A DNA stretch of 60,465 nt, from the NCBI GenBank assembly GCA_017387685.1, contig JAFOEU010000029.1:1-60465 (forward strand). The letters are read 5' to 3'. Positions within the stretch are counted from its first letter, which is position 1; each line of letters starts with the position of its first letter. The DNA comes from Clostridia bacterium (GTDB lineage Bacteria > Bacillota > Clostridia > Oscillospirales > CAG-272). The position numbers and the translations under genes were made by a program. A model generated the notes under the pieces. That model worked only from the letters and a program-made list of their open reading frames with translations, did no database searches and was not told the DNA's origin. Of the stretch, positions 10,472 through 59,999 are shown in pieces.

Positions 10472-10500
10472 TGCGATCGCCTTGATCGCGGAGGTATAAA

Positions 10501-43245: not shown

Positions 43246-43293
43246 TCAGGAAATTCAAATTGTGTATTTTAAATACATAGGAAAGGATAAAAA

Positions 43294-44394
43294 ATGATTC
43301 AAAGTGATAAGAAATCCGGCGTAAGTGATTTTATGGAACCCACCGATACCGGTACTATCGACTACAAGGACGTACTTGACGGTATGAACGACGTTGACAA
43401 TATCGACGAGATATTTGATGACGATGCCGATACCGAGCTTCTCCTTGCCGACGAAATGCCCGACGGCGAAATGGACAAGATCGAGAGCGAGGTCGAAAAA
43501 TTCGCTGACAGCGAGGCGATGGAGCGCTTGCTTGAGCAGGAGGGACTTGCTATCGATGACCCCGTCCGTATGTACCTCAAGGAGATCGGACGCGTCGAGC
43601 TTCTTTCTCAGCAGGAGGAGCTTGAGCTCGCAAAGGTAATGTATGACGAATCTCTCCCCGATGACGTCAGAAAGAGAGCGAAGGACAGACTCGTTGAGGC
43701 TAACCTCCGACTCGTTGTAAGCATCGCAAAGAGATACGTAGGCAAGGGAATGTTCTTCCTCGACCTCATTCAGGAGGGCAACCTCGGTCTTATTAAGGCT
43801 GTTGATAAGTTTGATTACGAGAAGGGCTTCAAGTTCTCGACCTACGCTACCTGGTGGATCCGTCAGGCGATCAACCGCGCTATCGCAGATCAGGCAAGAA
43901 CTATCAGAATTCCCGTTCACATGGTTGAGACCATTCATAAGGTCTCCCGCTATCAGCGTCAGCTCCTTCAGGAATACGGACGCGAGCCTACCGTGGACGA
44001 GCTCGGCGAAAAGATGGGCATGAGCTCGGATAAGGTCCGCGAGATCCTCAAGATCGCGCAGGAGCCCGTTTCCCTTGAAACTCCTATCGGTGAAGAGGAA
44101 GATAGCCATCTCGGCGACTTCATTCCCGATGACGAAACTCCCACTCCCGCAGATGCAGCATCCGCAACTATGCGCCGCGAGGTCATCGAGCGTCAGCTTC
44201 GAACCCTCACTCCCAGAGAGGAGCACGTTATCAAGCTTCGCTTCGGTCTTTACGACGGAAGATGCCGTACACTTGAGGAAGTAGGTCAGGAATTCAAGAT
44301 CACCCGTGAGAGAATCAGACAGATCGAGGCAAAAGCGCTCAGAAAGCTCCGTCACCCGAGCCGTGCACGTCACCTCAAGGGCTTTATGGAATAA
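43294..44394 (+). CDS. rpoD: primary sigma factor RpoD/SigA
   Basis: The housekeeping sigma factor, 366 aa. An acidic region 1.1 comes first (to ~85), then region 1.2 ([18 protein letters not shown]). Region 2 ([27 protein letters not shown]) includes the -10 recognition helix [14 protein letters not shown]. Region 3 ([24 protein letters not shown]) is followed by region 4 (LREEHVI-like text, [31 protein letters not shown]), which reads the -35. It fits the TTGACA/TATAAT promoters in this window. dnaG-rpoD is the core of the macromolecular synthesis operon. Confidence 0.98.
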
Positions 44395-44690
44395 TTCCTT
44401 GTGATTTCGACGGTATTCAAAATATGTTACTATGCAATAGTAACAAATTATTTTGCTCAATATCGTTAAAACGCACAAAAACTTCGACATATTTGTCAAA
44501 CCGCTATGCTCGGTTTTGTTGATATTGCTTCATAAACTCCGTCCATAGCGAAAATTGCAAGGAAGTGTTAGTCATTCGTTCAAAATTTTGACTTGACTTT
44601 TTGGCGATTTTGTAGTAGAATATATAATAACATTATCTGCGTACTGACCGCAGTGCGCAATTTCCACATTTCCTAAGGAGGAAAACCTAA
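44395..44690. other. intergenic region rpoD to solute-binding protein
   Basis: No coding frame supported. It holds one hairpin, TGTTACTAT 44425-44433 with ATAGTAACA 44437-44445 (loop GCA), without a proper U-tract. A promoter with TTGACT 44593-44598 and TAGAAT 44616-44621 (17 bp) precedes the solute-binding lipoprotein gene; TATAAT at 44623-44628 is an alternative -10. Confidence 0.6.
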
Positions 44691-46565
44691 ATGAACAAGA
44701 GAATTATTAGCTTGATTCTTGCATTCCTGATGCTCTCGACCTTCCTTTTCACCGGTTGTGATGCTCTTATGGGCGGTGAGGAGACAAATATCGGCGACGA
44801 TATGATTGACGAAGCATCCAACTCCGCGATGACCCTTTCTATGTTCGTCGTTTGCGAAAAAGAGGTGTCCGAGGAGACCGCAAGACTTGTTGAAAACGCA
44901 TTCAACAATATTACCAAGGCTAACTTTAAGACCCAGGTAAAGCTTCACTTCGCTACATACGATAACTATTATCAGATGATCGAAGAGCGCATCAAGAGCA
45001 ACGAAGAGTATGCGCTTCTTGAAAAAGAGGCTGCAAGCGCACTCAAGGCTGCAAGAAAGGCAGCTAAGGCAGAGGGCGTTGTAACTGACGACGCTTGGTT
45101 TGATGCTTTCTATGAGGAGCATCCCGACTACGCTCAGTTCCGCGAGACCGAGGAGCTTACCGGTGAAGATACCACCGCAGAGCAGACCGAGCTCGTAACC
45201 ATCGCAGGTATCGACAACAGCTACACTCTCAGCCAGGTTAAGTACCCCGATGAGAAGCCTGCTCAGATCGATATCCTTTGGATCGACAGCTATGAAAGAT
45301 ATCTTGAGTACATCGAGAGAGAAATGATCGAGCGTCTCGATCCCGAACTCAGCGGCGCATCCAAGAAGCTTAACGAGTACATCAACAACGAGCTTCTTCT
45401 TTGGGCAAAGTGGTCCACCAGCGGTACCTACGGTATCCCGAACAACGTAATTATCGGCGAATACACTTACCTCCTTGTTAATAAGGAGCTTGCAAAGAAG
45501 TACAGCTACAACCCCGAAGAGCTCGACACTCTCGCAAAGTGCTCTGACTTCCTTGCTGACGTTGCAGCTTACGAGCCCGGCGTAGCGCCCATCCTTGGCG
45601 ATATCTACACCACCGGTACATACTATTGGAACATCGATACTGCGACCGGTAAGATCAATTCCAATAAGTTCAACCTTCTCGCAAGTACTATGACCAACCG
45701 TACTCACGATCCGTCGATCGACACCAATGTTACTCTTGCTTGTAATAATGTATTCAAGAATGTAGAGTTCACCGATCAGCTCAAGTGCATTCAGGCATAT
45801 AAGGACGCAGGTTACGTAGTTGCTGAGTCTCAGAATCCTGCAAACTACGCAATTCGTATGATCAAGGGCGGCGCAGATCTCGCTGCTGTTTACGGTGAGG
45901 ATTATTCCCTCAACGTTCTTGAGTATCCCAGAGCAGGCTACGACGAAGTATTCAACAACATGCTTGCTGTTTCCACCTATACTCGCAGCCTTGCAAGAAG
46001 TATGCAGATCATCACTTATCTTAACACCAATAGCGACCTCCGTAACATTCTTCAGTACGGTGTAGAGGGTGTTCATTACAAGATCGATGATGATTCAGGC
46101 AAGCTCGTTCGTCTCAACCAGGATTATATGATGAAGCTTGAGACTACCGGTAACGTATTCATGGCTTATCCCGAAGAGGATATGCCTCTTGATGCGTGGG
46201 ATTGGGGTAAGAAGCAGAACCTTGACGTTAAGCCCTACCTCTCGATGGGATTTGATTTTGCTAATCGCGTAGTTGTTCCCGAGGGCGAGGATCCTGCAAG
46301 CTATTGGACTCTCAACATTGATAACATCACCAAGGTCAACGATCTTTCTGCAGACGTTGAGAAGCAGATCACTGCAGTAAAGAACCTTGCTGAGCTTGAG
46401 GAGCTCATTACCAAGTGGGCAGCTCTTGAGGATACCAACTCCTTCCTTAAGGTAGAAAAGTCTCCCGCAGAGCCTAAAGAGGGAAGCACAGATGTTCCCG
46501 GATTCTTCTACTACTATTCTCAGTGGGTACAGGATACCGGACTCTACGTTCCCAAGGAAGAGTAA
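44691..46565 (+). CDS. extracellular solute-binding lipoprotein (ABC type)
   Basis: A 624-aa protein with a lipoprotein signal: basic MNKR, a hydrophobic stretch and lipobox LFTGC with Cys23. The mature part has the look of a sugar-type family 1 binding protein: DILWIDSYERYLEYIE, GTYGIPNNVIIGEYTYLLVNKELAKKY and IKGGADLAAVYGEDYSLNVLEYPRA. It is longer than usual (about 400-550 aa), with an insertion rich in A/K/E around 95-130. No permease or ATPase genes lie beside it, so the partner transporter must be elsewhere. The ligand is unknown. Confidence 0.82.
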   Translation: MNKRIISLILAFLMLSTFLFTGCDALMGGEETNIGDDMIDEASNSAMTLSMFVVCEKEVSEETARLVENAFNNITKANFKTQVKLHFATYDNYYQMIEERIKSNEEYALLEKEAASALKAARKAAKAEGVVTDDAWFDAFYEEHPDYAQFRETEELTGEDTTAEQTELVTIAGIDNSYTLSQVKYPDEKPAQIDILWIDSYERYLEYIEREMIERLDPELSGASKKLNEYINNELLLWAKWSTSGTYGIPNNVIIGEYTYLLVNKELAKKYSYNPEELDTLAKCSDFLADVAAYEPGVAPILGDIYTTGTYYWNIDTATGKINSNKFNLLASTMTNRTHDPSIDTNVTLACNNVFKNVEFTDQLKCIQAYKDAGYVVAESQNPANYAIRMIKGGADLAAVYGEDYSLNVLEYPRAGYDEVFNNMLAVSTYTRSLARSMQIITYLNTNSDLRNILQYGVEGVHYKIDDDSGKLVRLNQDYMMKLETTGNVFMAYPEEDMPLDAWDWGKKQNLDVKPYLSMGFDFANRVVVPEGEDPASYWTLNIDNITKVNDLSADVEKQITAVKNLAELEELITKWAALEDTNSFLKVEKSPAEPKEGSTDVPGFFYYYSQWVQDTGLYVPKEE

Positions 46566-46583
46566 TTCCAAATTTAATATAAT

Positions 46584-46614
46584 AAGAAAAAGGCTGATTT
46601 TCAGCCTTTTTCTT
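46584..46614 (+). terminator. terminator after solute-binding protein
   Basis: AAGAAAAAGGCTGA 46584-46597 and TCAGCCTTTTTCTT 46601-46614 form a perfect 14-bp stem with loop TTT. Confidence 0.92.
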
Positions 46615-46623
46615 CGCTTTTGG

Positions 46624-46652
46624 TTGACTTTTCCTTCATTTTGTGGTATCAT
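46624..46652 (+). promoter_or_regulatory. promoter of SGNH hydrolase 1
   Basis: TTGACT 46624-46629 and TATCAT 46647-46652, spacer 17 bp, with TGTGG before the -10. The same arrangement precedes the paralogue at 54466. Confidence 0.8.
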
Positions 46653-46682
46653 TATGACATCACAAATCGGAGGACTTCTTTT

Positions 46683-47357
46683 ATGAATATTAAAGGCTTC
46701 AAAGTAAATTTTCTCGGTGACAGCATCACCGAGGGCGTTGGTGTTGTTGACAGAGCCAACTGCAGATACGATAAGCGTCTTGAGAAGATGTGCGAACTTT
46801 CAAAGACCAATAACTACGGCATCGGCGGTACCCGTCTTGCTCATCAGCAGAACGCAAGCGAAAAGCCCCGCCACGACCTCTGCTTCTGCGGACGCGTTTA
46901 CAATATGGATAAGACCGCTGATATGGTCGTTGTTTACGGCGGTGTAAACGATTATATCCACGGCGACGCTCCCTTCGGAGAGATCGGCGACAAGACCCCC
47001 GCGACCTTCTGCGGCGGCGTTTACTTCCTTATGAACTTCCTGCGCGAGAATTACGCGGGCAAGCCCGTTGTCTTTATGACACCCGCGCGTTGCTGCTACG
47101 GTAACGTAGACGACCTCGCTCCCTCGCCCAGATCTAACAAGCGTCCCGACGCTAAGGCTCTCATCGCTTACGTTGAGGTCATCGAGGAGACGGCAAAGCA
47201 GTTTGGCATCCCCGTTCTTAACCTCTATCACAAGCTCGGACTCGACCCCCACGATCCCGAAATCGCGGCAAAGTACACTTCCGACGGACTTCACTTCAAC
47301 GACGCAGGTCACGAATTCATCGCGACCAGACTTAAGGACTTCATCGAAAGTCTGTAA
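46683..47357 (+). CDS. SGNH/GDSL-type hydrolase, copy 1
   Basis: A 224-aa cytoplasmic-looking esterase (no signal peptide). The nucleophile is Ser14 in NFLGDSITEG (block I). NNYGIGG gives block II, VYGGVNDY block III (Asn), and SDGLHFNDAGH the Asp-His pair (block V). This fold includes carbohydrate acetylesterases and lipases; the substrate is unknown. It is ~79% identical to the protein at 54466-55140 by eye (46 differences in 224). The two copies bracket the XRE/GNAT gene array. Confidence 0.9.
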   Translation: MNIKGFKVNFLGDSITEGVGVVDRANCRYDKRLEKMCELSKTNNYGIGGTRLAHQQNASEKPRHDLCFCGRVYNMDKTADMVVVYGGVNDYIHGDAPFGEIGDKTPATFCGGVYFLMNFLRENYAGKPVVFMTPARCCYGNVDDLAPSPRSNKRPDAKALIAYVEVIEETAKQFGIPVLNLYHKLGLDPHDPEIAAKYTSDGLHFNDAGHEFIATRLKDFIESL

Positions 47358-47363
47358 TCAAAG

Positions 47364-47394
47364 AAGCACTCAACGCTCCGTTGAGTGCTTTTTT
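47364..47394 (+). terminator. terminator after SGNH hydrolase 1
   Basis: AAGCACTCAACG 47364-47375 and CGTTGAGTGCTT 47379-47390 form a 12-bp perfect stem with loop CTC, then TTTT. Confidence 0.93.
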
Positions 47395-47406
47395 CAATTT
47401 ATTTTA

Positions 47407-47435
47407 TTTACATTCTGCTCTCTTTGTGATATAAT
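47407..47435 (+). promoter_or_regulatory. promoter of XRE-TPR gene A
   Basis: TTTACA 47407-47412 and TATAAT 47430-47435, spacer 17 bp, TGTGA before the -10. Confidence 0.75.
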
Positions 47436-47462
47436 GTAATCAAGACGATTTGGAGGTGTGAA

Positions 47463-48476
47463 ATGGCAATATCCGATAAAATAAAGGAACACAGAATAAA
47501 ATGCGGAATGACGCAGGCACAGCTTGCCGAAGCACTCGGCGTGACCCCGCAAGCGGTTTCAAAATGGGAAAAGGGAACGGGCTATCCCGACCTTTCCGTG
47601 ATCTGCCCGCTTGCGGATGCTTTGGGCATCACGACCGACGAGCTACTCGAGCATAAGAATGTCTTGCGAGAACTGAATATGAAATGGTTGCGGCTAAAAT
47701 TTAAATGTGAAAAGTGGTAAAAACCTCTCCAAGATCTTGTTGCGCTTGATAACGAAATAATTTCTCAATTCCCGAACGACTATACATCTCTTTGGCGCCG
47801 CGTGTGCGATGAATTCGAGCTTGCGTGCCGTCAGAGTGATGCGGAAGAAAAAGAGAGGTGGCTTTCACTTGCCGAGGAACATTGCGCCGAGCTTATCAAT
47901 AACGATCACGATTGGGAAAATCCAAAGTATAAGATGGTTGAGATAATGATGGAGAGGGGGCGCAGCGACGAGGCGATCGCTTGGGCAAACAAGTGCAAAT
48001 CGCCCGATGATGCTATGAAAAAAGTTCTACGCGGAGATGAACTCCGCCGACACAGACAGATGTTGGTCTGCGAAAAGCTTCAGAGCCTTCTGCGTGAAAT
48101 GAGATGCGATGATCTCGATTTTCTGAAGGCATCGGAGGATATTATCCGCGCTCTCATTCCCGACGGCAACTATCAATGGTTTTATGATCACCTGATGATG
48201 ATCGAGTACACTCGCGCTAAATATTATTCCGCACTCGGTGACTCCGCCTCGACGATGAAGTATCTTTACCGTGCGCTTGACATCGCAAAGGAAAAGTTTA
48301 TCAAGGGAAAAGGAAAATTCACCGCCCCGCTCTTCGATGAGCTATCTCCCGAAAGCGGACCGATGAGCCTTTTGGAGCAATACCGTGACATTTTGCAACA
48401 TCGCGAAGGTCTTGAAGCTGTCTTTTTTACCGATGATTATCAAGAGCTGTTGGAGAAGATCAAGAGCTTGATATGA
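47463..48476 (+). pseudogene. XRE-TPR regulator with in-frame stop
   Basis: One reading frame of 337 codons interrupted by TAA at 47718-47720 (codon 86). Before it lies a complete XRE helix-turn-helix domain (IKEHRIKCGMTQAQLAEALG, VTPQAVSKWEKGTGYP). After it, in the same frame, comes a TPR-like helical region (KPLQDLVALDNEIISQFPND to the end). The continuation aligns with the neighbouring paralogue at 48575 (FPND, RR.CDE). A GAA to TAA change would explain it. The second part lacks a good ribosome site of its own (first GTG at 47802). It is therefore probably a nonsense-mutated gene, or it yields only an 85-aa DNA-binding fragment. Unlike the paralogues it has no GNAT-like domain. Confidence 0.85.
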
Positions 48477-48515
48477 TATCAACCGACGGTTGGGGGAAAC
48501 TGTTAATGCGGTTGC

Positions 48516-48544
48516 TTGAATATTACCTTGAGCTGTGGTATAAT
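48516..48544 (+). promoter_or_regulatory. promoter of XRE-TPR-GNAT gene B
   Basis: TTGAAT 48516-48521 and TATAAT 48539-48544, spacer 17 bp, TGTGG before the -10. Confidence 0.8.
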
Positions 48545-48574
48545 AGAATCATCAAATACATTTGGAGATAGAAA

Positions 48575-50188
48575 ATGGCAAATCACAATAAATCCTTGGG
48601 CGAAAAGATAAGAGAATACCGACAGAAAAAGGGAATGACACAAGATGCGCTCGCCGCAGAGCTTCATATTTCTTCGCAGGCCGTCTCAAAATGGGAAAAC
48701 GGTCTTACCTCTCCCGATATCAGCTTGCTCATACCGCTTTCGGGCACGCTTGGTGTTGAAGTCAACGATCTTCTCGGCGGCGGCAGACGTGACGAGCTTG
48801 AACGCGCTTGGCATAAGACCTGGCCGCTCGGCGATGAATTAAGCCTTGTCTTCGCAGAGGAAGCGTTGAAGGAATTCCCAAATGACGAAACATTTCTATA
48901 CCGCCGCGCGTGTGATGAATATTTTCTCGGTGTCAATAAAAATGTATCAGAAGAGCAAAGAGAACTATATCTCCTCCGTGCGGATTACCATTTCACCACT
49001 CTTCACAATAAATATCCCGAGCAGGATACCTATACCTCTTTTCTGGCGCAGGTTTGCCACGTGCGCGGCAAGCGAGATCGCGCACTTGAGCTGATATATA
49101 CTTGCAAAAAGAGCGAGAGCCGAGAGCGCCTGATCGCGGAGATTCTTGGCGGCGAAGATGAAATCAAATATAAAAAGAGCAAGATAGATAATCTCGTTTG
49201 GGAGCTATTTCGCAAGCTTGAAAATCAAAACACACGCGAATCCATCGCGTCCGCGCGCTCTCTGATCGAATTGTTTTCAATAAAGGACAAAGAAGAGTTG
49301 ACTCGTTCTCTGAATTATAAAGAAGCGGAGCTCAGACTTGCGGATGGTGACGTTGACGGTTATCTGAAACTGCTCAATGAAGTCTACGATTCGCTCGACG
49401 GCGGAGCCCGATCCGAGAAATTGGACCTTCAGCCGCTTTACGACGATTGCGGAGCGATGCGCAAGCCTCTTGTTAAAGAACTCGACGGTATGATAGGTAC
49501 ATTTCTCGCTAAGTCCGAGCGCGTCCATCCATCGTCACGCGAATTGCGTCGCAAGTTGGTCGATGCCACGGTCAGAATCGAGAACATCAGCAAAACGAAT
49601 TGGAAAAACTATTTTACCTTCTGCTACCGACACGTAAGACACGGTGACCTTTTCCGATATAGCACCGAATGGGATATGACTTCCGAGGAGAATGCCGCGC
49701 TTGATGCGGTTTTTACCAACTATTATAAGGAAATGCGCCCGCTTGCCGTTGCGTACACTCTTGAAGCCTATCGCCGTGAGGTCGAGCGACTTTTCGGAGT
49801 CGGTGCGATGACTGGCTTTGTCGCAAAGCTTGATTCTTGCCCCGTCCTTGGCTATTGCAATTGCGGCGCGAAGAAAAAATACAAGACTCTTCCCTCGTTG
49901 CAGTGTCACGACGATCTTCCCGACGGCACGAAGGTTTTTTCGATAGTTGACGTTCTTGTCGCCAACAGCTTCACTCTATGCGGACTTGAAGAAAAGCTGA
50001 TCGACCGTGCCATGCACGAGGCTCAAACGGCGGGATACACCCATGTCGAAGCCTATCCGTCCGAAAGTCTCTGTGGCGAAGCGTTCGACGTTCTTGTCGC
50101 TTACTATGAAAGCATCGGCTTCGTAACCGTCCGTGACCTCACGAATGAGGACGACGGCAGAAGCTTTATGATGCGAAAAGCTCTGTAA
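48575..50188 (+). CDS. XRE helix-turn-helix / TPR / GNAT-like fusion protein
   Basis: A 537-aa multidomain protein. The XRE domain is at about 8-68 (IREYRQKKGMTQDALAAEL, SSQAVSKWENG). A helical repeat region of TPR type runs from ~75 to 375. A C-terminal domain (about 383-537) resembles GNAT acetyltransferases: GFVAKLDSCPVLGYCNCGAK, FSIVDVLVANSF, GLEEKLIDRAMHEAQTAGYTHVEAYP and YYESIGFVTVRDL. The acetyl-CoA loop, normally R/QxxGxG/A, reads TLCGLE here, so catalysis is doubtful. It is probably a DNA-binding regulator with a sensor domain. It has its own promoter and terminator and is paralogous to its neighbours on both sides. Confidence 0.8.
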   Translation: MANHNKSLGEKIREYRQKKGMTQDALAAELHISSQAVSKWENGLTSPDISLLIPLSGTLGVEVNDLLGGGRRDELERAWHKTWPLGDELSLVFAEEALKEFPNDETFLYRRACDEYFLGVNKNVSEEQRELYLLRADYHFTTLHNKYPEQDTYTSFLAQVCHVRGKRDRALELIYTCKKSESRERLIAEILGGEDEIKYKKSKIDNLVWELFRKLENQNTRESIASARSLIELFSIKDKEELTRSLNYKEAELRLADGDVDGYLKLLNEVYDSLDGGARSEKLDLQPLYDDCGAMRKPLVKELDGMIGTFLAKSERVHPSSRELRRKLVDATVRIENISKTNWKNYFTFCYRHVRHGDLFRYSTEWDMTSEENAALDAVFTNYYKEMRPLAVAYTLEAYRREVERLFGVGAMTGFVAKLDSCPVLGYCNCGAKKKYKTLPSLQCHDDLPDGTKVFSIVDVLVANSFTLCGLEEKLIDRAMHEAQTAGYTHVEAYPSESLCGEAFDVLVAYYESIGFVTVRDLTNEDDGRSFMMRKAL

Positions 50189-50194
50189 ATTCAA

Positions 50195-50232
50195 AAAGCT
50201 GCGACCTATCATAAGTTCGCAGCTTTTTTTCC
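50195..50232 (+). terminator. terminator after XRE-TPR-GNAT gene B
   Basis: AAAAAGCTGCGA 50195-50206 pairs with TCGCAGCTTTTT 50219-50230, with the T-tract running to 50232. Confidence 0.9.
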
Positions 50233-50302
50233 AAGACAAAGCGCGGAAACCGTGCTAAAATATACTCAACCCGCGGTTGTATCCCTCTCTCCGAGAAGTT
50301 AC

Positions 50303-50331
50303 TTGCAATTTTCACGCGGTTGTGCTATAAT
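50303..50331 (+). promoter_or_regulatory. promoter of XRE-TPR-GNAT-SUKH gene C
   Basis: TTGCAA 50303-50308 and TATAAT 50326-50331, spacer 17 bp, TGTGC before the -10. Confidence 0.75.
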
Positions 50332-50359
50332 TAAGACAAGAAAACTAAGGAGCGGAAAA

Positions 50360-52594
50360 ATGCAGGAAAACAACATCGGTTCAAAGATTCGCAATTATCG
50401 ACAGAAAAAAGGAATGACTCAGGATGCGCTCGCGGCAGAGCTTCACGTTTCCGCGCAAGCCGTGTCGAAGTGGGAAAACGGGCAGACGATGCCCGATATA
50501 TCCTTCCTTGTTCCTCTCTCAAAGATATTGGGACTCGGGCTCTACGAACTTCTCGGCGGTGACCTGCGCGACGTGTACGAAAAAAAGTGGCGCGAGGCAG
50601 ACGAGCTCTGCGACGATCTTGCACTCCTTGCCGCAGAGGAGGCACTTTCCGAGTTTCCCGAGGATGAGGAATTCCTCTATCGCCGAGCGGTTGCGGAATA
50701 CAAGCTCGGTAAGCTCGAAGCCGCCGAGCAGTACAAAGGCTCGGCCCGGCTCTTCTTCAATGCGCTGGAGCATTTTGAGGATCTCGTCCGCCGTTTTCCC
50801 GAAAATCAAGAATATAAGTCAATGCTCGCCCGCACTCACTTTGCGCTCGGCAAAAAGCAAGAGGCTTTCAAGATCGCGTATTCCTTGCGTAACTCCAAGG
50901 ACCTCGTCTTTGAATTCAGCTCCGACGAGGAGAGGGAAGTGCTTCGCCAAAGAAAGCTCAAGCCTATGCTCACGGGCTTTATCTGTCAGCTCAGAAAGAT
51001 CAACACCCGCGATTCGATCCGCGCGGCTTACGGCGTGGTCGACGCGATGTGCGGCGATGACGTTTATCTTCGCAATTGTTATTATTGCAACATTTGCACA
51101 GCCGATGCGCTTCTTTGCCTTGACGAGGGAGATATTGACGGTTATACCGCGAAGCTCGGCGAGGCTTACGAATGTGCGAAAAGAATTGATCATTTGGCTC
51201 TTGAAGAACATTTTCGGGAAACCAATTATACCGCACCGATCTTTAATAAGCTTACCTACGATGCCGCAAATTTGTGGCATAGCGAAATATACGAGCTTCT
51301 TTATGCCTTCTTAAACGAGAAAAAGCTCGCGCATCCCGCGTCTGCAGATATCCGCCGCAGAATGGCGGAGGAATGCTTCACTTATGCTCCGCTTCATAAA
51401 AACGTGTGGAAAAACTATTTCCGCTTCTGCAATAAGTACATTTGCGATTCCCGCTATTCGAATTACAGCACGGGCTTCCACGTAACCGAAGAGGAAGGAA
51501 TGGTAAAGTTCAACGGCATTAAGTTTAAGCCTAACGGACACGCAAGGCTCGTCGAGATATATAAAGACGAGATAGAGCAGTTGGTCACCTCGGGCGAGAT
51601 GCGCGGACACGTTGCGTTTTGCGGCGAGGATGTAGTCGCCTTTTGTCATTGCGGAGCAAAGGAGAGCTTCAAGCGATATTACAATGAGTCAGCCGTAGCA
51701 CCCGAGGGAACAAGGATCTTTTCGATAGTCGATCTCCTTGTTGCTAAAAGCTTAAAATTCGTCGGCGTTGAGGAAAAGCTTCTTTCGAACGCTATTTCCG
51801 AGGCAAAACATTCGGGCTACACCCACGCGGAGGTCTATATGATCGAGCGTATGCAGCGACCGAGCGAGATTGAGCATTATGACTATATGCTCGAAGTTTA
51901 TGCAAAGCTCGGCTTTGAGGTCGTCCGTGATCTCTCGTCCGATAATTGCGGCAGATTCTATATAATGCGAAAAACACTCCGCACAGACAAGCGCGAGGAA
52001 TACGATTATTCAATTGAAACCGAGAAATATCAAGAGATTCTCAATAAGCTGAAAAAGAAGAATTATACCGTTCTTCCCGGAATGACGGATGAGGAGAGAA
52101 GTGCGATCGAGCGCACCTACGGATTCACATTCCCGCGCGCACTCGCCGATTTCTATGCTATTGGCATTCCGCAGACCCAAAGTCCGCGAGGCTCTTTCCC
52201 GAGATGGAGGGATTTGAGCGAGGACAACGTGTCCGATATCAAAAAGCTCATTGCGGCACCGATCGAAAATCTCCGCTCTGATGTCAGAGGAGGCTTCTGG
52301 ATCAGCACTTGGGGCAGTCGTCCCGAGAGTACCGAGGATGCCGTGGCGCTATTTGATTTAATTGCTAAAAAAGCACCCAAGCTGATTCCGATCTACGGTC
52401 ACAGATACGTTCCCGTGATCGAGGGCGTTGACGACCCGCCCGTAATTTCGGTTTCGGGAAGAGATATTATATATTACGGAAACAACCTTTCAAGCTATCT
52501 GAAAAACGAAGTCGTCGGTTTCAAAGACCCGATCGACTGCGACAAATTCGATCCCATCCCGTTCTGGAGCGATATAATAATAGAAAATTTCTAA
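50360..52594 (+). CDS. XRE / TPR / GNAT-like / SUKH (SMI1/KNR4) four-domain fusion
   Basis: A 744-aa protein. XRE domain about 8-68, nearly the same as in gene B (NYRQKKGMTQDALAAELH). TPR-like helices about 70-390. GNAT-like domain about 400-540 (GHVAFCGEDVVAFCHCGAK, GVEEKLLSNAISEAKHSGYTH, YAKLGFEVVRDL), again with a degenerate CoA loop (KFVGVE). The C-terminal ~195 residues look like a SUKH domain: MTDEERSAIERTYGFTFPRALADF, FWISTWGSRPES, LIPIYGHRYVPVIEG and DIIYYGNNLSSYL. SUKH proteins are best known as immunity proteins to polymorphic toxins. ATG 50360 follows AAGGAGCGG. Function not established; perhaps a sensor-regulator tied to immunity. Confidence 0.78.
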   Translation: MQENNIGSKIRNYRQKKGMTQDALAAELHVSAQAVSKWENGQTMPDISFLVPLSKILGLGLYELLGGDLRDVYEKKWREADELCDDLALLAAEEALSEFPEDEEFLYRRAVAEYKLGKLEAAEQYKGSARLFFNALEHFEDLVRRFPENQEYKSMLARTHFALGKKQEAFKIAYSLRNSKDLVFEFSSDEEREVLRQRKLKPMLTGFICQLRKINTRDSIRAAYGVVDAMCGDDVYLRNCYYCNICTADALLCLDEGDIDGYTAKLGEAYECAKRIDHLALEEHFRETNYTAPIFNKLTYDAANLWHSEIYELLYAFLNEKKLAHPASADIRRRMAEECFTYAPLHKNVWKNYFRFCNKYICDSRYSNYSTGFHVTEEEGMVKFNGIKFKPNGHARLVEIYKDEIEQLVTSGEMRGHVAFCGEDVVAFCHCGAKESFKRYYNESAVAPEGTRIFSIVDLLVAKSLKFVGVEEKLLSNAISEAKHSGYTHAEVYMIERMQRPSEIEHYDYMLEVYAKLGFEVVRDLSSDNCGRFYIMRKTLRTDKREEYDYSIETEKYQEILNKLKKKNYTVLPGMTDEERSAIERTYGFTFPRALADFYAIGIPQTQSPRGSFPRWRDLSEDNVSDIKKLIAAPIENLRSDVRGGFWISTWGSRPESTEDAVALFDLIAKKAPKLIPIYGHRYVPVIEGVDDPPVISVSGRDIIYYGNNLSSYLKNEVVGFKDPIDCDKFDPIPFWSDIIIENF

Positions 52595-52646
52595 AAATGC
52601 GTAACCTTTTGCCGTATTTTGCTACTAATATATAAGAGGTGATATT

Positions 52647-53129
52647 ATGAAATACGTTTCAATCAACCAACTTCACGATTTCGAGTTTCACGATAGCGTG
52701 TGGAGCTTTGTTTCGTGGGAGAATGACAATCTTACCGTGAAGATTCGTATGCTTAATATCCATAAGGATGCCGTGCAGAATGGTTCCGCCGAGGATATGG
52801 AGATCAAAGAAGTCACCGTTACCTTCACGGGTATTAAGCATGCCACGTACACTCTTCCGCGCACATGGTACAAGGATGAAAAAGGCAATTCCGTTACCAA
52901 TGACCCGCTTGTAGTTTACGAAAACGGCGAGGCGGTTGAGAGATTTATTGATGCTCTCAAGCAAGAGGATCTCGCTGAATGTATGTTTTTCGATAAAAAA
53001 GATGAAAAATACGAGTTCGGCGGAATCGGAAGAGAATGGATCAGCTTCGAATTCGATTTTGCCGGCGTAACGGTCGAGTGGGATGAATTCGACGGAAAAG
53101 CGTGGTATGTCCGCGAGAGAAAACAGTAA
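52647..53129 (+). CDS. uncharacterised 160-aa protein, possibly immunity-like
   Basis: Not assigned to a named family. It begins YVSINQLHDFEFHDSVWS and is made of short alternating hydrophobic/polar strands with many Trp, Phe, Asp and Glu residues (e.g. WISFEFDFAGVTVEWDEF), suggesting an acidic all-beta protein with no signal peptide or membrane helix. Small acidic proteins beginning LHDFEFHD-like are often found near toxin-immunity loci, but that is a weak analogy. AAGAGGTGAT precedes the ATG. It lies directly after the SUKH-containing gene C, possibly with its own weak promoter (TTGCCG 52609, TATAAG 52631). Confidence 0.65.
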   Translation: MKYVSINQLHDFEFHDSVWSFVSWENDNLTVKIRMLNIHKDAVQNGSAEDMEIKEVTVTFTGIKHATYTLPRTWYKDEKGNSVTNDPLVVYENGEAVERFIDALKQEDLAECMFFDKKDEKYEFGGIGREWISFEFDFAGVTVEWDEFDGKAWYVRERKQ

Positions 53130-53200
53130 TCAATTGCATTGAAAAATACTCTTTTGATGCAAAATATATTTTTACGTGCTGACCGTTAGTCAGAAAAAGA

Positions 53201-53518
53201 ATGAAAGAAAAAACTTTCACCAAAGAAGAATTAACCCGCCGCGCGCAGATCGCGGCAACCGCACTCGGTCTCATTGAAGCCATCGAAAATGGCGTCATCG
53301 ACACCGACACCGCAGAATCCCTCCTTTTCCGTCCCGGGATCTTTGAAAAATACAAGGATGACCCCGAGCTCTACCGCCTCTTAAACCTCGGCGAGGAGCT
53401 TTGTTGGACGGTGTGGCACTCCCTACCCGAAGCACGCGAGGAGTCTCTGCGGGATATCAAAGAAATTGCGTACCGCTTATTGCGGGATGCTCCGAAAGCA
53501 AAGGTAAAACATTTATGA
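53201..53518 (+). CDS. small helical protein, unknown (partner of ATPase)
   Basis: A 105-aa protein with mostly helical, charged sequence: FTKEELTRRAQIAATALGLI, AIENGVIDTDTAESLLFRPG, LGEELCWTV. It faintly recalls DUF3969-type proteins (a short helix pair around TAESLLF), but I cannot confirm this. No membrane segment. The upstream ribosome site is poor (AGAAAAAGA). Its TGA stop overlaps the ATG of the ATPase gene by 4 bp, so the two products are likely made in a fixed ratio and may interact. Confidence 0.7.
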   Translation: MKEKTFTKEELTRRAQIAATALGLIEAIENGVIDTDTAESLLFRPGIFEKYKDDPELYRLLNLGEELCWTVWHSLPEAREESLRDIKEIAYRLLRDAPKAKVKHL

Positions 53519-54396
53519 TCTACATCAAAAAACTCACCCTACCGAGCGAGCTTGCCGAGGCAAAAGTGATAGAGCTTGAAAAGCGCACCTGCTTTAATAC
53601 CTTTTACCCATTCAAGATATTCCCCGAAATGGGACTTGGAAGTCTTGATTTTGACGGCATAACTATGCTCTACGGCGGCAACGGGTCGGGAAAAAGCACA
53701 CTCATCAACGTCCTCGCACACAAAATGCGCGCGGCTCGCTATTCCGAATTCAACGATGCACCGCTTTTCGACAGATTTACCGAGATGTGCTCGCTTGACT
53801 ATATGCGCACACCGAGAAGAAGCTCTGTGCTGACAAGCGATGACGTTTTCGATTACGTCCTCAAGGCGCGTACAGTTAACGAGAATATAAGCGAACAGAG
53901 AAACGAGCTTTTCGACAAATACGTTGCTATCCACGGAGGGGCAGAGCGGAATCCCGACATCCTACGTCTTAAAGGTCTTGACGATTACGAGCGCTGGAGC
54001 GAAACGATGGAGATCCTTTCGCCGAGAAAATCGCAGTCGAGCTATGTCAAAAAGCGCACGGCAAGGGATATCGATCTCTATTCAAACGGACAGACCGCGA
54101 TGCGCTACTTCCTTGAGCGCATAGAGGACGATGCTGTCTATCTCCTCGACGAGCCCGAAAACAGCCTCTCGATCGAGTTTCAGATCGAGCTTGCCGAGTA
54201 TATTTCGGCAACCGCACGCGTAGGACGCACGCAGTTTATAATTGCGACGCATTCTCCCGTTTTCCTTGCGATGAAGGAAGCAAAGATCTATAACCTCGAC
54301 AGCTACCCCGCGTCCGTCTGCCGTTGGACCGAGCTCCCTAACGTGCGTAAATATTTTGATTTCTTTATGGAGCACAAGCACGAATTTGAAAGGTAA
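53515..54396 (+). CDS. AAA/ABC-type ATPase, single domain
   Basis: A 293-aa ATPase: Walker A YGGNGSGKSTLIN (about 52-64), a helical middle (about 75-180), a signature-like LYSNGQTAMRYFLE, Walker B AVYLLDEPENSLS and the switch region FIIATHSPVFLAM. This is the AAA_21/OLD-like group that resembles ABC and Rad50 heads. There is no attached nuclease (TOPRIM) or membrane domain. It overlaps the small upstream gene by 4 bp. ATPases of this kind occur in defence systems with a partner effector, but also as orphan genes. Function here unknown. Confidence 0.85.
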   Translation: MIYIKKLTLPSELAEAKVIELEKRTCFNTFYPFKIFPEMGLGSLDFDGITMLYGGNGSGKSTLINVLAHKMRAARYSEFNDAPLFDRFTEMCSLDYMRTPRRSSVLTSDDVFDYVLKARTVNENISEQRNELFDKYVAIHGGAERNPDILRLKGLDDYERWSETMEILSPRKSQSSYVKKRTARDIDLYSNGQTAMRYFLERIEDDAVYLLDEPENSLSIEFQIELAEYISATARVGRTQFIIATHSPVFLAMKEAKIYNLDSYPASVCRWTELPNVRKYFDFFMEHKHEFER

Positions 54397-54408
54397 ATCA
54401 TAAAAATC

Positions 54409-54437
54409 TTGACAAATCCTCCGTTTTGTGGTATGAT
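54409..54437 (+). promoter_or_regulatory. promoter of SGNH hydrolase 2
   Basis: TTGACA 54409-54414 and TATGAT 54432-54437, spacer 17 bp, TGTGG before the -10; nearly the same layout as at 46624-46652. Confidence 0.85.
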
Positions 54438-54465
54438 AAACGTATCACATTACGGAGGTTTCTCT

Positions 54466-55140
54466 ATGAATATAAAGGGTTATAAAATAAATTTCCTCGG
54501 CGACAGCATCACCGAGGGCGTTGGCGTTGTTGATAAGGCTAACTGCAGATATGACAAGCGACTCGAGAAGATGTGCGAGCTTTCAAAGGTGAACAACTAC
54601 GGCATCGGCGGCTCGCGACTTGCTCATCAGACAAAGCCGAGCGAAAAGCCGCGCCACGATCTTTGCTTCTGCGGCAGAGCTTACGATATGGACAAGAGTG
54701 CGGATATGGTTGTGGTTTACGGCGGCGTTAACGATTACGTTCACGGTGACGCGCCCTTCGGTGAGATCGGCGACAAGACACCCGCGACCTTCTGCGGCGC
54801 AGTTTACTTCCTTATGAAATTCCTCACCGAAACCTATGCGGGCAAGCCCGTCATCTTTATGACTCCCGCTCATTGTTGTTACAGCGACGTCGATGACCTT
54901 TATCCCTCGCCCCGTCCGATCAAGCTCCCCGACGCAAAGCCTCTGCTTGCGTACGTTGAGGCGATCGAGGAAAATGCAAAGCTGTTCGGTGTTCCCGTGC
55001 TCAATCTCTATCGCGATCTCGGCATTGATACCCACGACCGCGAGCTTCAGGCGAAATATACCTCGGACGGAATTCATTTCAACGACGACGGCCACGCGGT
55101 TCTTGCTCAAAAGCTCAAGGAATTTATTGAAGCTCTTTAA
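54466..55140 (+). CDS. SGNH/GDSL-type hydrolase, copy 2
   Basis: A 224-aa protein with exactly the length of its paralogue at 46683-47357 and the same catalytic blocks: Ser14 in GDSITEG, VYGGVNDY, and SDGIHFNDDGH. Four of the conserved Cys residues are kept (CFCG, CC). It is followed by a very strong terminator and then by the polysaccharide-degradation operon, so it might act as a carbohydrate esterase on the same material. That link is inference from position only. Confidence 0.9.
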   Translation: MNIKGYKINFLGDSITEGVGVVDKANCRYDKRLEKMCELSKVNNYGIGGSRLAHQTKPSEKPRHDLCFCGRAYDMDKSADMVVVYGGVNDYVHGDAPFGEIGDKTPATFCGAVYFLMKFLTETYAGKPVIFMTPAHCCYSDVDDLYPSPRPIKLPDAKPLLAYVEAIEENAKLFGVPVLNLYRDLGIDTHDRELQAKYTSDGIHFNDDGHAVLAQKLKEFIEAL

Positions 55141-55181
55141 TAGGAAAAGCGGCAAAATCTCGGATTTTGCCGCTTTTCCTA
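55141..55181. terminator. terminator with 19-bp perfect stem
   Basis: The arms 55141-55159 and 55163-55181 are perfect complements around a TCG loop; they start TAGGAAAAGCGG and end CCGCTTTTCCTA. The end of the stem provides the U-rich side. It starts right after the SGNH stop codon and ends one base before the -35 of the next promoter. Confidence 0.9.
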
Positions 55182-55209
55182 TTGAAAATTAAATATTTTA
55201 TGGTATAAT
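55182..55209 (+). promoter_or_regulatory. promoter of the polysaccharide-degradation operon
   Basis: TTGAAA 55182-55187 and TATAAT 55204-55209 with a 16 bp spacer; GGAGGTGA and the dehydrogenase start follow at 55226 and 55238. Confidence 0.7.
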
Positions 55210-55237
55210 TATAGTAATAAAAAGCGGAGGTGAAATG

Positions 55238-56245
55238 ATGAAGACCTTTGTGACTCTGCCGAAAAACTCGGTTTTTCCGACCTTTTTTACCAACGAAAAT
55301 ATCGCCCTTGCCGAGTCGCTCGGCGAGGTGATCTGGAATGATAAGGAAATACAACTGACACACGATGAGATTGCTCAAAGCATCGGGAACAGCGACGTTT
55401 ACGTGACCGGCTGGGGCTCTCCGCGCCTTGACGCGAGAATTCTCGATGTAGCTCCGAGCCTTAAATTACTCGTCCATCTCTGCGGTACGGTCGTTCCCGT
55501 TGTCAGCGACGAGCTGTGGGAGCGCGGTATCCGCGTCGTTTCCGGCAACGATTTCTTTGCTGAATCGGTCGCCGAGGGAACGATCGGATACATCCTTTCC
55601 GCTCTGCGCGATATCCCGAAATACAGCTCGCGCCTCAAAAATGAAAGGAAGTGGAAGACTTCATCCGACACCAACCGCGGTCTGCTCGGTAAGACCGTCG
55701 GAATCGTCAGCTACGGCGCGATCGCGCACCATCTTGTGCGGATGCTTCAGCCTTTCCGCGTGAAGATCAAGCTTTACGACATCAAGCCGATCCCCGAGGC
55801 TGACAAGGCTATGTATAATATCACCGAAGCGAGCCTTGAGGATCTCTTTTCCATCTGTGATATAGTCACGGTTCACACGCCGCTCAACGAGCATACGCAC
55901 CACTTGATCGGCGCACCGCTGCTTTCGCTTCTGAAAGATGACGCGCTGTTTGTCAACACCTCGCGCGGTGCCGTTATAGATCAAGCGGCACTTGAGAGCG
56001 AGCTTGAAAAGGGGCGTTTTCGCGCGTTCCTCGACGTTTACGAAAAAGAGCCGCCTTCCGTCGAAAGCCGACTTTACGGGCTCCCGAATGTGATAATGAT
56101 GCCTCACATGGGTGGTCCGACCGTCGATCTGCGACGTGATATAACCCAAGCGTTACTTATCGAAGCATCCGATTTCCTTAAAAACGGCGCGCCGTTGCCA
56201 CACGAAATAACCCGTGCCGCCGCGTCTATGATGTCAAGGAGTTAA
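55238..56245 (+). CDS. D-2-hydroxyacid dehydrogenase family protein
   Basis: A 335-aa NAD(P)-dependent oxidoreductase of the phosphoglycerate-dehydrogenase type. The catalytic Arg is in NTSRGAVIDQAAL, Glu in YEKEPP and His in MPHMGGPT. The cofactor loop, usually GxGxxG, reads SYGAIA (about 157-162), so the first Gly is Ser and the last Ala. ATG 55238 follows GGAGGTGA (ATG 55235 is possible). It heads a tight operon (2 bp, 4-bp overlap, 9 bp) with the heparinase-like, isomerase and GH43 genes, so it may oxidise or reduce a sugar acid released from a polysaccharide. Confidence 0.88.
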   Translation: MKTFVTLPKNSVFPTFFTNENIALAESLGEVIWNDKEIQLTHDEIAQSIGNSDVYVTGWGSPRLDARILDVAPSLKLLVHLCGTVVPVVSDELWERGIRVVSGNDFFAESVAEGTIGYILSALRDIPKYSSRLKNERKWKTSSDTNRGLLGKTVGIVSYGAIAHHLVRMLQPFRVKIKLYDIKPIPEADKAMYNITEASLEDLFSICDIVTVHTPLNEHTHHLIGAPLLSLLKDDALFVNTSRGAVIDQAALESELEKGRFRAFLDVYEKEPPSVESRLYGLPNVIMMPHMGGPTVDLRRDITQALLIEASDFLKNGAPLPHEITRAAASMMSRS

Positions 56246-56247
56246 AA

Positions 56248-58089
56248 ATGATTATTTCACCATATAAAAAACCACCCGTCACGCCTCCGCCCGAGCATCC
56301 GAGGCTGATGCTCCGCCGTAAGAATCTTGAAAGAATTTCAAATGCCGACCGCAATTCAACAGCTTGGAGGCAATACCGCGAGCTTTGCGAATTCCCCGTT
56401 TGCGGTGAGGGCGCGATGCGGGATAAAGGAACTTATCATTTGAAGGAATACCTCGCACTTGAGGCGAAGGCACTTGAAGCTTTGCTTGAAAACGATGGGG
56501 AAAAGGGAAGAGACACTATCGAAACCTTGCTTTTTCTGCTTCGCGGTGTCGTGGTACACGATGATTATATGAAAGCGCGATTCGCGGGGCATCTTATCTT
56601 CCTTGCCTCCGAGGTCTACGATTGGTGCTATGATCTGCTGACCTCCTCCGAGCGTGACGAAATAATCTCGCGTTGTGAAGCTCTTGCTGAAAAATACCTC
56701 GAAATGGGTTACCCGCCAGCAAAGCAAGCGGCAATCAGCGGTCACGGCAACGAGGCACAGCTCTTGCGTGATCTGCTCGCGTTTTCTATCGCGGTCTATG
56801 ACGAGCGTCCCGATATTTATAATTTCTGTGCGGGCAGACTTTTTGAGGAGTATATCCCCGCATATGAAAAGGTTTTCGAGGGCGAATTTCATCCGCAAGG
56901 TCCTTGCTACGGCTCGTACCGCTACGCTTGGGCGATGTGGTTCGGGCTTCTCATCTATTCAATGAGCGGTGAGAGAGTTCTTCCTCCAAAGACGGTTTCA
57001 ACCGCAGAAAGTTTTATATATCTCCGCCGTCCCGACGGTGAGGCGTTGAGGCTGGGCGACGATTACAACGAAACGAAAGCGTTGTACACACATAAAAATC
57101 CCTTTTTCGTGCCGCTTTTCCTCGCGGCGGCGTATAGCGGAGATTGCCTTTGGTACTCCGAAGCGCAAAAGCAATTTCGCGAGGAATATCTCATTCCGCT
57201 CGCGTGGAGCTACGATTACTATGACGAAGGCTCGTGCGGAGAGGGCGTGATCTCGCCCGCCGTCTATCTGATATGGGATCGGCTTTCGCCCCTTGGTGAA
57301 GAAAGAACGCTCCCGAGCGGCAGATATTTTGATTTTCCCGTCGGCGCGACCGTATATAACGACGGCGAGCGCGTAGTTCTGATGAAGATCGGCTGTCTTT
57401 GGGGCGCAAATCACGACCACCTCGATACGGGTTGCTTCCAAATATACGACGGCGAGATTCTTGCTTCAGATTCGGGAGTTTACGACAGCTACGGAACCCT
57501 CCATCGCAGAAAATACACTATACACACAGTCGCGCACAACTGCATTCTCGTCGACGGCAAGGGGACTCGCTTTCCGTGCGGAAAAAAGGAACCGAGCACG
57601 CTTGACGGTTGGCTTTCGGAATACGGCATGGCAAAGGTCCTCTCGCATAGGGAAGATAACGGCGTTTATGAGATCGAGGGGGATCTGAGTGAGGCTTACG
57701 CCGAAACCTGCGTTTCGGTGACACGCAAAATGCGATTTGAACCCGATTCGGGTGAGCGCGGAATCCTTACGGTTTACGACAGCGTTGAGCCGAAGGATGA
57801 AAAATCAACCGTCGCGGTTCTTTTGCATTGTCAAAGTGAGCCCGAAATTGACGGCGATATGGTTATTATTAAAGGTAAAAATCGTGAGCTTCATTGCCGC
57901 GTTAAGAGCCCCGCAAACGTAAAAGTCGAGGTCATCGGCGGCGAGGGACACCGTTTTGAAAATGACGGAATCGACTATCTCCCGCAAGTTGACACGACGG
58001 AAGCGGGATGGGGCAGAGTTATGATTACCTCGGTCGGTAAAACCGACTTTGAGGTCGAAGCAGAGATTCGCAGAAAGGATCAAAAATGA
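56248..58089 (+). CDS. heparinase II/III-like polysaccharide lyase family protein
   Basis: A 613-aa protein without signal peptide. It has an N-terminal alpha/alpha-toroid-like region (about 20-320, with SGHGNEAQLLRDLLAFSI and GEFHPQGPCYGSYRYAW). The heparinase II/III C-terminal beta domain follows (about 340-610), with WGANHDHLDTGCFQIYDGE, a DSGVYDSYGT stretch and HTVAHNCILVDGKG, the family's hallmark. Family members cleave acidic polysaccharides such as glycosaminoglycans or alginate by beta-elimination. The lack of a signal suggests it acts on imported oligosaccharides. It overlaps the next gene by 4 bp. Confidence 0.85.
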   Translation: MIISPYKKPPVTPPPEHPRLMLRRKNLERISNADRNSTAWRQYRELCEFPVCGEGAMRDKGTYHLKEYLALEAKALEALLENDGEKGRDTIETLLFLLRGVVVHDDYMKARFAGHLIFLASEVYDWCYDLLTSSERDEIISRCEALAEKYLEMGYPPAKQAAISGHGNEAQLLRDLLAFSIAVYDERPDIYNFCAGRLFEEYIPAYEKVFEGEFHPQGPCYGSYRYAWAMWFGLLIYSMSGERVLPPKTVSTAESFIYLRRPDGEALRLGDDYNETKALYTHKNPFFVPLFLAAAYSGDCLWYSEAQKQFREEYLIPLAWSYDYYDEGSCGEGVISPAVYLIWDRLSPLGEERTLPSGRYFDFPVGATVYNDGERVVLMKIGCLWGANHDHLDTGCFQIYDGEILASDSGVYDSYGTLHRRKYTIHTVAHNCILVDGKGTRFPCGKKEPSTLDGWLSEYGMAKVLSHREDNGVYEIEGDLSEAYAETCVSVTRKMRFEPDSGERGILTVYDSVEPKDEKSTVAVLLHCQSEPEIDGDMVIIKGKNRELHCRVKSPANVKVEVIGGEGHRFENDGIDYLPQVDTTEAGWGRVMITSVGKTDFEVEAEIRRKDQK

Positions 58090-58868: not shown

Positions 58869-58877
58869 GGTGACGAA

Positions 58878-59771: not shown

Positions 59772-59778
59772 AAAAATT

Positions 59779-59810
59779 AAGCACCGAGAACTTCTCTCGG
59801 TGCTTTTATT
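59779..59810 (+). terminator. terminator after GH43 gene
   Basis: AAGCACCGAGA 59779-59789 pairs with TCTCGGTGCTT 59795-59805, then TTATT. Confidence 0.9.
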
Positions 59811-59970
59811 AATTTAATGCAAATTATATATTACTAAACATTGAATATATTCTGCGAAAATCCTCATATTTTTGCTCTCGCAGTTGCTCAGATTAATGAT
59901 TTAATGGTTGAAGACGGCAAATAATATATCAGTTACATCTACAATTTTTATTGATAAACATCAACATCTA

Positions 59971-59999
59971 TTGACAATTGCCGCGGAAGGTAGTATAAT
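59971..59999 (+). promoter_or_regulatory. promoter of prepilin-like gene
   Basis: TTGACA 59971-59976 and TATAAT 59994-59999, spacer 17 bp. The rest of 59811-60078 is A/T-rich and shows no gene. Confidence 0.9.

What the first reader, a model, noticed from the sequence alone, without database searches (positions are those of the whole stretch)
47463..54396. Array of XRE-TPR regulators progressively fused to GNAT-like and SUKH domains, with an ATPase pair
Three neighbouring paralogues share an N-terminal XRE domain and TPR-like helices. Gene A stops there (and carries a nonsense codon), gene B adds a GNAT-like domain, gene C adds GNAT-like plus SUKH. Behind them lie a possible immunity-like protein and a small-protein/AAA ATPase pair overlapping by 4 bp. 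SUKH proteins are known immunity proteins of polymorphic toxins, and ATPase plus small partner is a frequent defence layout. The combination of DNA-binding, helical repeat, acetyltransferase-fold sensor and SUKH in one chain is unusual. I infer a possible sensing/immunity or stress-regulation island; no function is shown.
Basis: partly seen in the sequence, partly recalled or inferred. Interest (0 to 1): 0.72.

Follow-up and report, generated by a model that had tools for sequence, protein, structure and literature searches.

The report
Toxin-immunity modules fused to gene regulators
In uncultured gut Clostridia, protein modules that probably protect bacteria from their neighbours' toxins are attached to DNA-binding regulators and shuffled between them, which suggests, but does not prove, that such bacteria switch protection on when attacked.

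Summary
Genes A (broken by one TAA), B and C share XRE and TPR-like parts; B and C add a GNAT-like domain without the acetyl-CoA motif (0 of 10 fused copies keep it, 22 of 22 stand-alone relatives do); C adds a divergent SUKH domain. Relatives show combinatorial swapping, not progressive fusion: 6 of 11 XRE-TPR-GNAT genes at 8 loci carry extra modules of five kinds. In the goat-gut relative L066, gene D's domain is fused to the regulator and C's SUKH to DUF3969, beside the same AAA gene. A relative of C's SUKH starts 11 nt behind an ORF ending in a ribonuclease domain, the layout of a toxin-immunity pair. New here: a palindrome, CAACC-N3-GGTTG or close to it, lies 75-117 nt upstream of A and of 10 of 11 core genes, mostly 23 nt before a -35 box; in L070 one copy lies between the core gene and a divergent multi-module gene. 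Best reading: an autoregulated polyimmunity-type locus whose immunity-type modules are built into its own transcription factors.

The parts
47371..47383 (.). palindrome CAACGCTCCGTTG upstream of A (also inside a terminator-like hairpin, 47360-47394)
47407..47435 (+). promoter-like TTTACA-17-TATAAT of A, 23 nt behind the palindrome
47463..48476 (+). gene A: XRE head and TPR-like helices, in-frame TAA at 47718-47720
48480..48492 (.). palindrome CAACCGACGGTTG upstream of B
48516..48544 (+). promoter-like TTGAAT-17-TATAAT of B, 23 nt behind the palindrome
48575..50188 (+). gene B: XRE-TPR-GNAT-like regulator, 537 aa
50194..50229 (+). hairpin with T run between B and C, terminator-like (not listed by the scanner)
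50267..50279 (.). palindrome CAACCCGCGGTTG upstream of C
50303..50331 (+). promoter-like TTGCAA-17-TATAAT of C, 23 nt behind the palindrome
50360..52594 (+). gene C: XRE-TPR-GNAT-like-SUKH, 744 aa
52028..52591 (+). SUKH-like tail of C
52647..53129 (+). gene D: module without Pfam family, fused to regulators in L066, L070, L104, L105
53201..53518 (+). gene E: DUF3969, fused to SUKH in L066
53515..54396 (+). gene F: AAA_21 ATPase of an array-linked group
46680..47357 (+). flanking GDSL/SGNH hydrolase, copy 1 (not part of the system)
54466..55140 (+). flanking GDSL/SGNH hydrolase, copy 2 (not part of the system)

Best explanation
An orphan polyimmunity-type locus with built-in regulators. Each regulator (B, C; A is a broken relative) has an XRE DNA-binding head, TPR-like helices and a degenerate, probably non-catalytic GNAT-like domain; some carry a swappable immunity-type module (SUKH in C). 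The XRE head would bind the palindrome CAACC-N3-GGTTG, centred about 65 nt before the expected start of transcription, and control its own promoter; from C's promoter the message would run on through D, E and the ATPase F. Binding of an incoming toxin, or of another ligand, to the tail, GNAT or TPR part would change the regulator and raise the dose of immunity-type proteins. Seen in sequence: gene order, domain relations, swapping, operator-promoter geometry, a ribonuclease-domain gene directly before a SUKH relative. Inferred: that these XRE heads bind the palindrome, that its position means activation, that the modules neutralise toxins, that toxins are the signal, and the C-D-E-F transcript. 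The ATPase's role is unknown.
For: Swapping: 6 of 11 core genes carry extra modules of five kinds; window D is fused to a regulator and window SUKH to DUF3969 in L066 (59% and 54% identity). Toxin link: a SUKH relative (39%, E 2.3e-35) starts 11 nt behind an ORF with a C-terminal PF00545 ribonuclease domain (40.1 bits, cut-off 24). One tail, DUF4279 (66.1 bits, cut-off 25), is called an immunity domain in PMC13304343 (two passages). D and the Cys-rich module, both found as tails, are also near neighbours as separate genes in G252 and G576. Operator: score 8/10 or more in 11 of 12 (A plus 11 core genes), ten of them at 75-82 nt; random stretches reach 8 at 70-95 nt in 120 of 20000. GNAT motif 0 of 10 against 22 of 22. 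Array-linked ATPases are one side of a branch, 0 of 500 shuffles.
Against: No immunity or DNA binding was tested. Gene C has a single immunity-type domain; D, DUF3969, DUF6304-like and the Cys-rich module have no shown link to a toxin here. No toxin of the LXG or RHS kinds in the own genome, which is 85% complete. The palindrome is not more frequent genome-wide than its reversed control (17 against 15) and also precedes three other XRE genes, so it is not private to this system. Only 6 of 15 further genes tried have a site. 9 of 15 ATPase loci have no tail module nearby. D stands without a recognised module near it in L124-L126. Related loci are not independent; the joint branch of the array ATPases has weak support (74/34).
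Confidence: 0.5

Rival explanations
1. A signalling regulator family, RRNPP-like XRE-TPR proteins, whose GNAT-like and tail domains bind peptides or small ligands; the SUKH, D and DUF domains are generic binding modules, and the genes control metabolism or stress, not immunity.
For: XRE-TPR regulators without tails are common in the order (partial matches); B and 4 other core genes have no tail; the palindrome also precedes other XRE genes; its position upstream of -35 fits activators (inference).
Against: The tails include SUKH and DUF4279, which elsewhere pair with toxins; tails also occur as separate neighbouring genes; no evident peptide gene: only ORFs of 15-32 aa that overlap promoter or coding sequence in the gaps (judged by eye).
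Confidence: 0.25
2. An anti-phage or abortive defence unit in which the ATPase F, with E, is the effector and the XRE proteins are its regulators.
For: F matches AAA_21 (63.5 bits) and PADLOC ATPase models, best AriA 62.2 bits; F is the best conserved gene (90% identity with L066, dN/dS 0.07).
Against: PADLOC hits are to general ATPase parts and no nuclease or TOPRIM partner was found in A-F; E has no PADLOC match; 9 of 15 F relatives sit without the modules; no match of C in phage records.
Confidence: 0.13
3. A genomic hotspot: unrelated genes gathered by recombination, with no common function.
For: Flanking GDSL duplicates (82% over 300 nt); broken gene A; content differs between relatives.
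Against: Same modules fused in one chain in several combinations, common operator-promoter geometry, purifying selection.
Confidence: 0.1

Closest known systems
Polyimmunity loci and polyimmunity proteins (Zhang et al. 2012, PMC3482391; section 39 read, other passages seen)
   Same: Co-directional close genes, no toxin inside, content varies between relatives, SUKH prominent, several immunity-type domains in one chain (L066 417 aa; AraC proteins of about 1230 aa)
   Different: Modules are fused to XRE-TPR-GNAT-like or AraC DNA-binding regulators with a common operator; in the held text I found no regulator fusion ('transcriptional regul' 0, 'HTH' 2)
SUKH immunity proteins such as YobK (2prv)
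   Same: Weak profile relation (E 0.18); a relative sits behind a ribonuclease-domain gene
   Different: Tail of a regulator instead of a separate protein; best solved-structure hits (olivetolic acid cyclase, E 0.12) are no better than chance
XRE antitoxins such as MqsA (abstract start of PMC4894380)
   Same: XRE head plus a partner-binding part; AACC-type half-sites, MqsA AACCT-N3-AGGTT
   Different: Other spacing; palindrome lies upstream of -35; no toxin gene beside it
RRNPP regulators (PlcR, ComR and kin; recalled)
   Same: XRE head followed by TPR helices
   Different: Extra GNAT-like and immunity-type domains; no peptide gene recognised
Orphan immunity and acquired interbacterial defence clusters of gut Bacteroidales (listing of PMC12247911; otherwise recalled)
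   Same: Immunity genes kept without toxins in gut bacteria
   Different: Other phylum; no regulator fusions known to me

Membership tests
Polyimmunity locus | several immunity genes in tandem | tested here: inconclusive
   SUKH tail only is of a known immunity kind in the window; D and DUF3969 are unproven
Polyimmunity locus | no toxin gene within the array | tested here: met
   A-F carry no toxin domain in Pfam or NCBIfam above cut-off
Polyimmunity locus | same orientation, short gaps | tested here: met
   six + strand genes, gaps 98, 171, 52, 71 and -4 nt
Polyimmunity locus | content varies between relatives | tested here: met
   window against L066, L103-L107
Polyimmunity locus | neutralises a toxin | not testable with these tools
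   needs bench work
Polyimmunity protein | two or more immunity domains in one chain | tested here: not met
   gene C has one immunity-type domain, SUKH; L066 417 aa has DUF3969, SUKH and a third module
SUKH superfamily | profile match over the curated cut-off | tested here: not met
   window tail 14.0 bits, L066 24.0 bits, cut-off 25.4; 11 of 11 rows match at E<=0.1
SUKH superfamily | relative next to a toxin gene | tested here: met
   L129, ribonuclease-domain ORF 11 nt before the SUKH relative
GNAT acetyltransferase (active enzyme) | R/Q-x-x-G-x-G/A acetyl-CoA motif | tested here: not met
   0 of 10 fused copies, 22 of 22 stand-alone relatives, K also allowed at the first place; L067 keeps G-x-G only
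RRNPP regulators | XRE head plus TPR repeats | tested here: met
   HTH_3 58.6 bits, TPR_16 33.6 bits on C; TPR weak in A and B
RRNPP regulators | signal peptide gene beside the regulator | tested here: inconclusive
   only ORFs of 15-32 aa in the gaps, judged by eye
Type II antitoxin (MqsA-like) | toxin gene in the same operon | tested here: not met
   none among A-F

The most novel reading that the evidence does not exclude
A toxin-sensing transcription factor family: an immunity domain in the regulator's own chain captures an incoming toxin, and this binding directly switches on a polyimmunity operon through the CAACC-N3-GGTTG operator, so that interbacterial immunity is inducible and its specificity changes by swapping tails.
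Probability: 0.25. Interest if true: 0.87.

Novelty: new variant of a known kind. Interest (0 to 1): 0.62.

Why it matters
Interbacterial immunity proteins are usually seen as passive antidotes. If immunity modules are wired into their own regulators, bacteria may sense an attack and raise immunity on demand. The swappable tails and the fixed operator-promoter unit make this directly testable with reporters, and could help to assign function to orphan families (gene D, DUF3969, DUF6304-like, the Cys-rich module).

Tried and rejected
Progressive fusion A to B to C: rejected, because relatives show many combinations and gene A's TPR part is closest to a different architecture, L038 (37%). Catalytic acetyltransferase: unlikely on the lost motif. 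Phage- or plasmid-borne core: no confirmed relative in viral contigs for D or the TPR-GNAT alignment, none of C in phage records at E 1e-12; in plasmids 11 records match, all within C residues 531-740, the SUKH end. LXG and RHS toxins in the own genome: none, with positive controls. Structured RNA in 43000-60465: none at gathering. Empty site in a same-genus genome: G065 has the 2-hydroxyacid dehydrogenase in a setting where no other window protein tested matched, G112 has no match, so no answer. Solved-structure relatives of D: none better than E 0.39. D beside a toxin: none recognised by eye in L123-L126 and L136-L140; no profile search of those neighbours was made. ATPase always with modules: rejected. 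Print on regulator-immunity fusions: word searches (no paper) gave no listing that I recognised as describing them; the 2011 SUKH paper was not held.
Full report
What is there. The window is G000:C16 of a 2.58 Mb, 116-contig genome, 84.7% complete. Six co-directional genes lie at 47463-54396. A (47463-48476) has an XRE head, TPR-like helices and one in-frame TAA. B (48575-50188) and C (50360-52594) share XRE, TPR-like and GNAT-like parts (37% identity over the core). C runs on into a SUKH-like tail. D (52647-53129) has no Pfam family. E is DUF3969 (28.3 bits, cut-off 25) and overlaps the AAA_21 ATPase F by 4 nt. Apart from A and B, the 13 other matches to C in the own genome lie within its first 106 residues, the XRE end.

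How firm the domain calls are. On the window proteins alone GNAT and SUKH are weak and under the curated cut-offs. Across aligned relatives, 11 of 11 SUKH rows match SMI1_KNR4 at E<=0.1 (best 9.7e-6) and 6 of 11 GNAT rows match Acetyltransf_1 (best 9.2e-8). Among solved structures the SUKH profile has only weak hits, olivetolic acid cyclase (E 0.12) and the SUKH protein YobK (E 0.18). The acetyl-CoA motif is kept by 0 of 10 fused GNAT-like domains (L037 not included) and by 22 of 22 stand-alone relatives; L067 keeps the G-x-G part only. Yet between L017 and L018 this is the most constrained part (dN/dS 0.10, against 0.14-0.19 for the others), so it is probably kept for binding (inference).

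Relatives. In 146 family genomes, 4 including the own one have a match to C from XRE to GNAT (G000, G068, G115, G118). In 394 order genomes, 50 match the TPR-GNAT alignment, 2 of them over its full length (G000, G453); the rest match the TPR or the GNAT part only. The genome-contig scan confirmed 6 loci, all MAGs; five titles name a ruminant gut source, that of L067 none. L067, L068 and L071 are the same contigs as those of G115, G068 and G118, so the set is 11 core genes at 8 loci.

Domain swapping. By profile search over 33 loci, 6 of 11 core genes carry an extra module: C SUKH; L066 gene 1 a two-part tail (FTG, TAIL9); L066 gene 2 window D's domain plus a DUF6304-like one; L069 gene 1 an N-terminal DUF4279; L067 and L068 (one genus) a Cys-rich module. 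Five have none. FTG, TAIL9, HEAT, ZN, M8, SKE and DUF2004L are my working labels. L066 resembles the window: its ATPase is 90% identical, the next gene, a 2-hydroxyacid dehydrogenase, 77%. There D's domain is inside a regulator (59% identity) and C's SUKH (54%) is fused to DUF3969. In L070, L104 and L105 an AraC regulator of about 1230 aa carries HEAT, ZN, FTG, two DUF2004L and one D domain. The L103, L104 and L105 arrays hold a SUKH gene and the ATPase; in L103 the two overlap by one base. L066, L104 and L105 also hold a membrane protease (Rce1-like, 85.1 bits on the L105 protein), a kind recalled as bacteriocin immunity.

Co-occurrence. In 147 order genomes each, F relatives (E<=1e-25) occur in 18, SUKH-tail relatives (E<=1e-12) in 3, D relatives (E<=1e-4) in 7. 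Six genomes have both D and F; in 3 of them (G000, G003, G071) the two share a contig stretch, G003 and G071 being one genus. In the class sample D was found in 4 of 391 genomes. D and the Cys-rich module lie 1.3 kb apart in G252 and 119 nt apart in G576, a different family (Cys-rich profile E 6e-56, the sequence being in the profile, and 2e-12). D stands without a listed module near it in L124-L126. The six array-linked ATPases are one side of a branch in a 23-row tree (0 of 500 shuffles; support 74/34 for that branch, 100/98 and 100/100 for its halves). Against an obligate link, 9 of 15 ATPase loci in the table have no tail module (a short partial match in L124 not counted).

Toxin link. L129 (G146, contig of 3251 nt) has a relative of C's SUKH (39% over 185 residues, E 2.3e-35) that starts 11 nt behind a 342 aa ORF with a C-terminal PF00545 ribonuclease domain (40.1 bits, cut-off 24); its linker looks to me like those of polymorphic toxins (recalled). 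This is the layout of a toxin-immunity pair. DUF4279 is called an immunity domain of polymorphic toxins in PMC13304343 (two passages seen). The own genome shows no LXG and no RHS repeat; the controls rang.

Operator. I noticed the palindrome in the upstream stretches, so its form was fitted to them. CAACN5GTTG occurs 3 times in the window (0.48 expected; 1 of 100 shuffles reaches 3), each time 79-82 nt before A, B or C. The own genome has 17 sites against 15 for the reversed pattern: the number is not enriched, only the placing. Three other sites precede XRE genes (C35, C55, C116). Scored against CAACC-N3-GGTTG, 11 of 12 genes (A plus 11 core genes) reach 8/10 or more, ten at 75-82 nt and L069 gene 1 at 117; L069 gene 2, second in tandem, has none. 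Random stretches of the loci, true sites included, reach 8 at 70-95 nt in 120 of 20000, and anywhere in 260 nt in 1169 of 20000. The best promoter lies 23 nt on with a 17 nt spacer in 8 of 11; L066 gene 2 gives 22/18 with the same -10, L071 and L037 weaker ones at 18 and 19. Of 15 further genes tried, 6 have a site of 8/10 or more, five of these with the 23 nt gap (L108, L103, the 381 aa gene of L104, the AraC genes of L105 and L070) and one with 21 (L010); 9 have none. In L070 one palindrome (5655-5667) lies between the core gene and the divergent AraC multi-module gene, 23 nt from each -35 box. In L105 the AraC gene's site is not the one nearest the core gene. With a start 7 nt behind -10 the centre is about 65 nt upstream, which fits an activator better than a repressor (inference).

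Reading. Swapping and the ribonuclease pair fit the polyimmunity idea of Zhang et al. 2012 (section 39 read): co-directional, close, no toxin inside, variable. Gene C itself is no polyimmunity protein, having one immunity-type domain. What differs is the fusion to DNA-binding regulators with a common operator. MqsA, an XRE antitoxin, binds AACCT-N3-AGGTT (abstract start): half-sites resemble ours, spacing does not. RRNPP regulators (recalled) share the XRE-TPR plan.

Limits. The G genomes and MAGs are drafts; related loci are not independent (about six cases, by my grouping); immunity, DNA binding and signal are untested; most tails have no assigned function; print was searched by words only.

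Noticed in passing
46680-47357 and 54466-55140: Two GDSL/SGNH hydrolase paralogues (79% protein identity; 82% over 300 nt) flank the array as direct repeats; in L066 the second copy is absent between the ATPase and the 2-hydroxyacid dehydrogenase.
   Followed up: partly
47463-48476 and L066:3497-5683: Gene A shares promoter region and XRE head (60% over 62 aa) with L066 gene 1, but its TPR part is closest to L038: possible recombination just behind the XRE head.
   Followed up: partly
L128 (G396) 7991-11419: An XRE-TPR head is fused to the HEAT-like part otherwise seen behind AraC heads; the next gene holds part of the D domain and a zinc-like module.
   Followed up: partly
L114 (G236) 22-369 and 2018-2305: An ATPase relative lies near what look by eye like RHS and HNH toxin remnants.
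   Followed up: no
L110 (G143) 2038-14176: Array with SUKH, Cys-rich, zinc-like and AraC-HEAT genes on one strand and no XRE-TPR-GNAT gene.
   Followed up: partly
G000:C18:25705-26583 (L121): The own genome has a second ATPase of the F kind (44% identity) without tail modules nearby.
   Followed up: partly
G000 C35:7736, C55:9096, C116:10756: The palindrome class also precedes other XRE genes of the same genome, so it may serve a wider XRE subfamily.
   Followed up: partly
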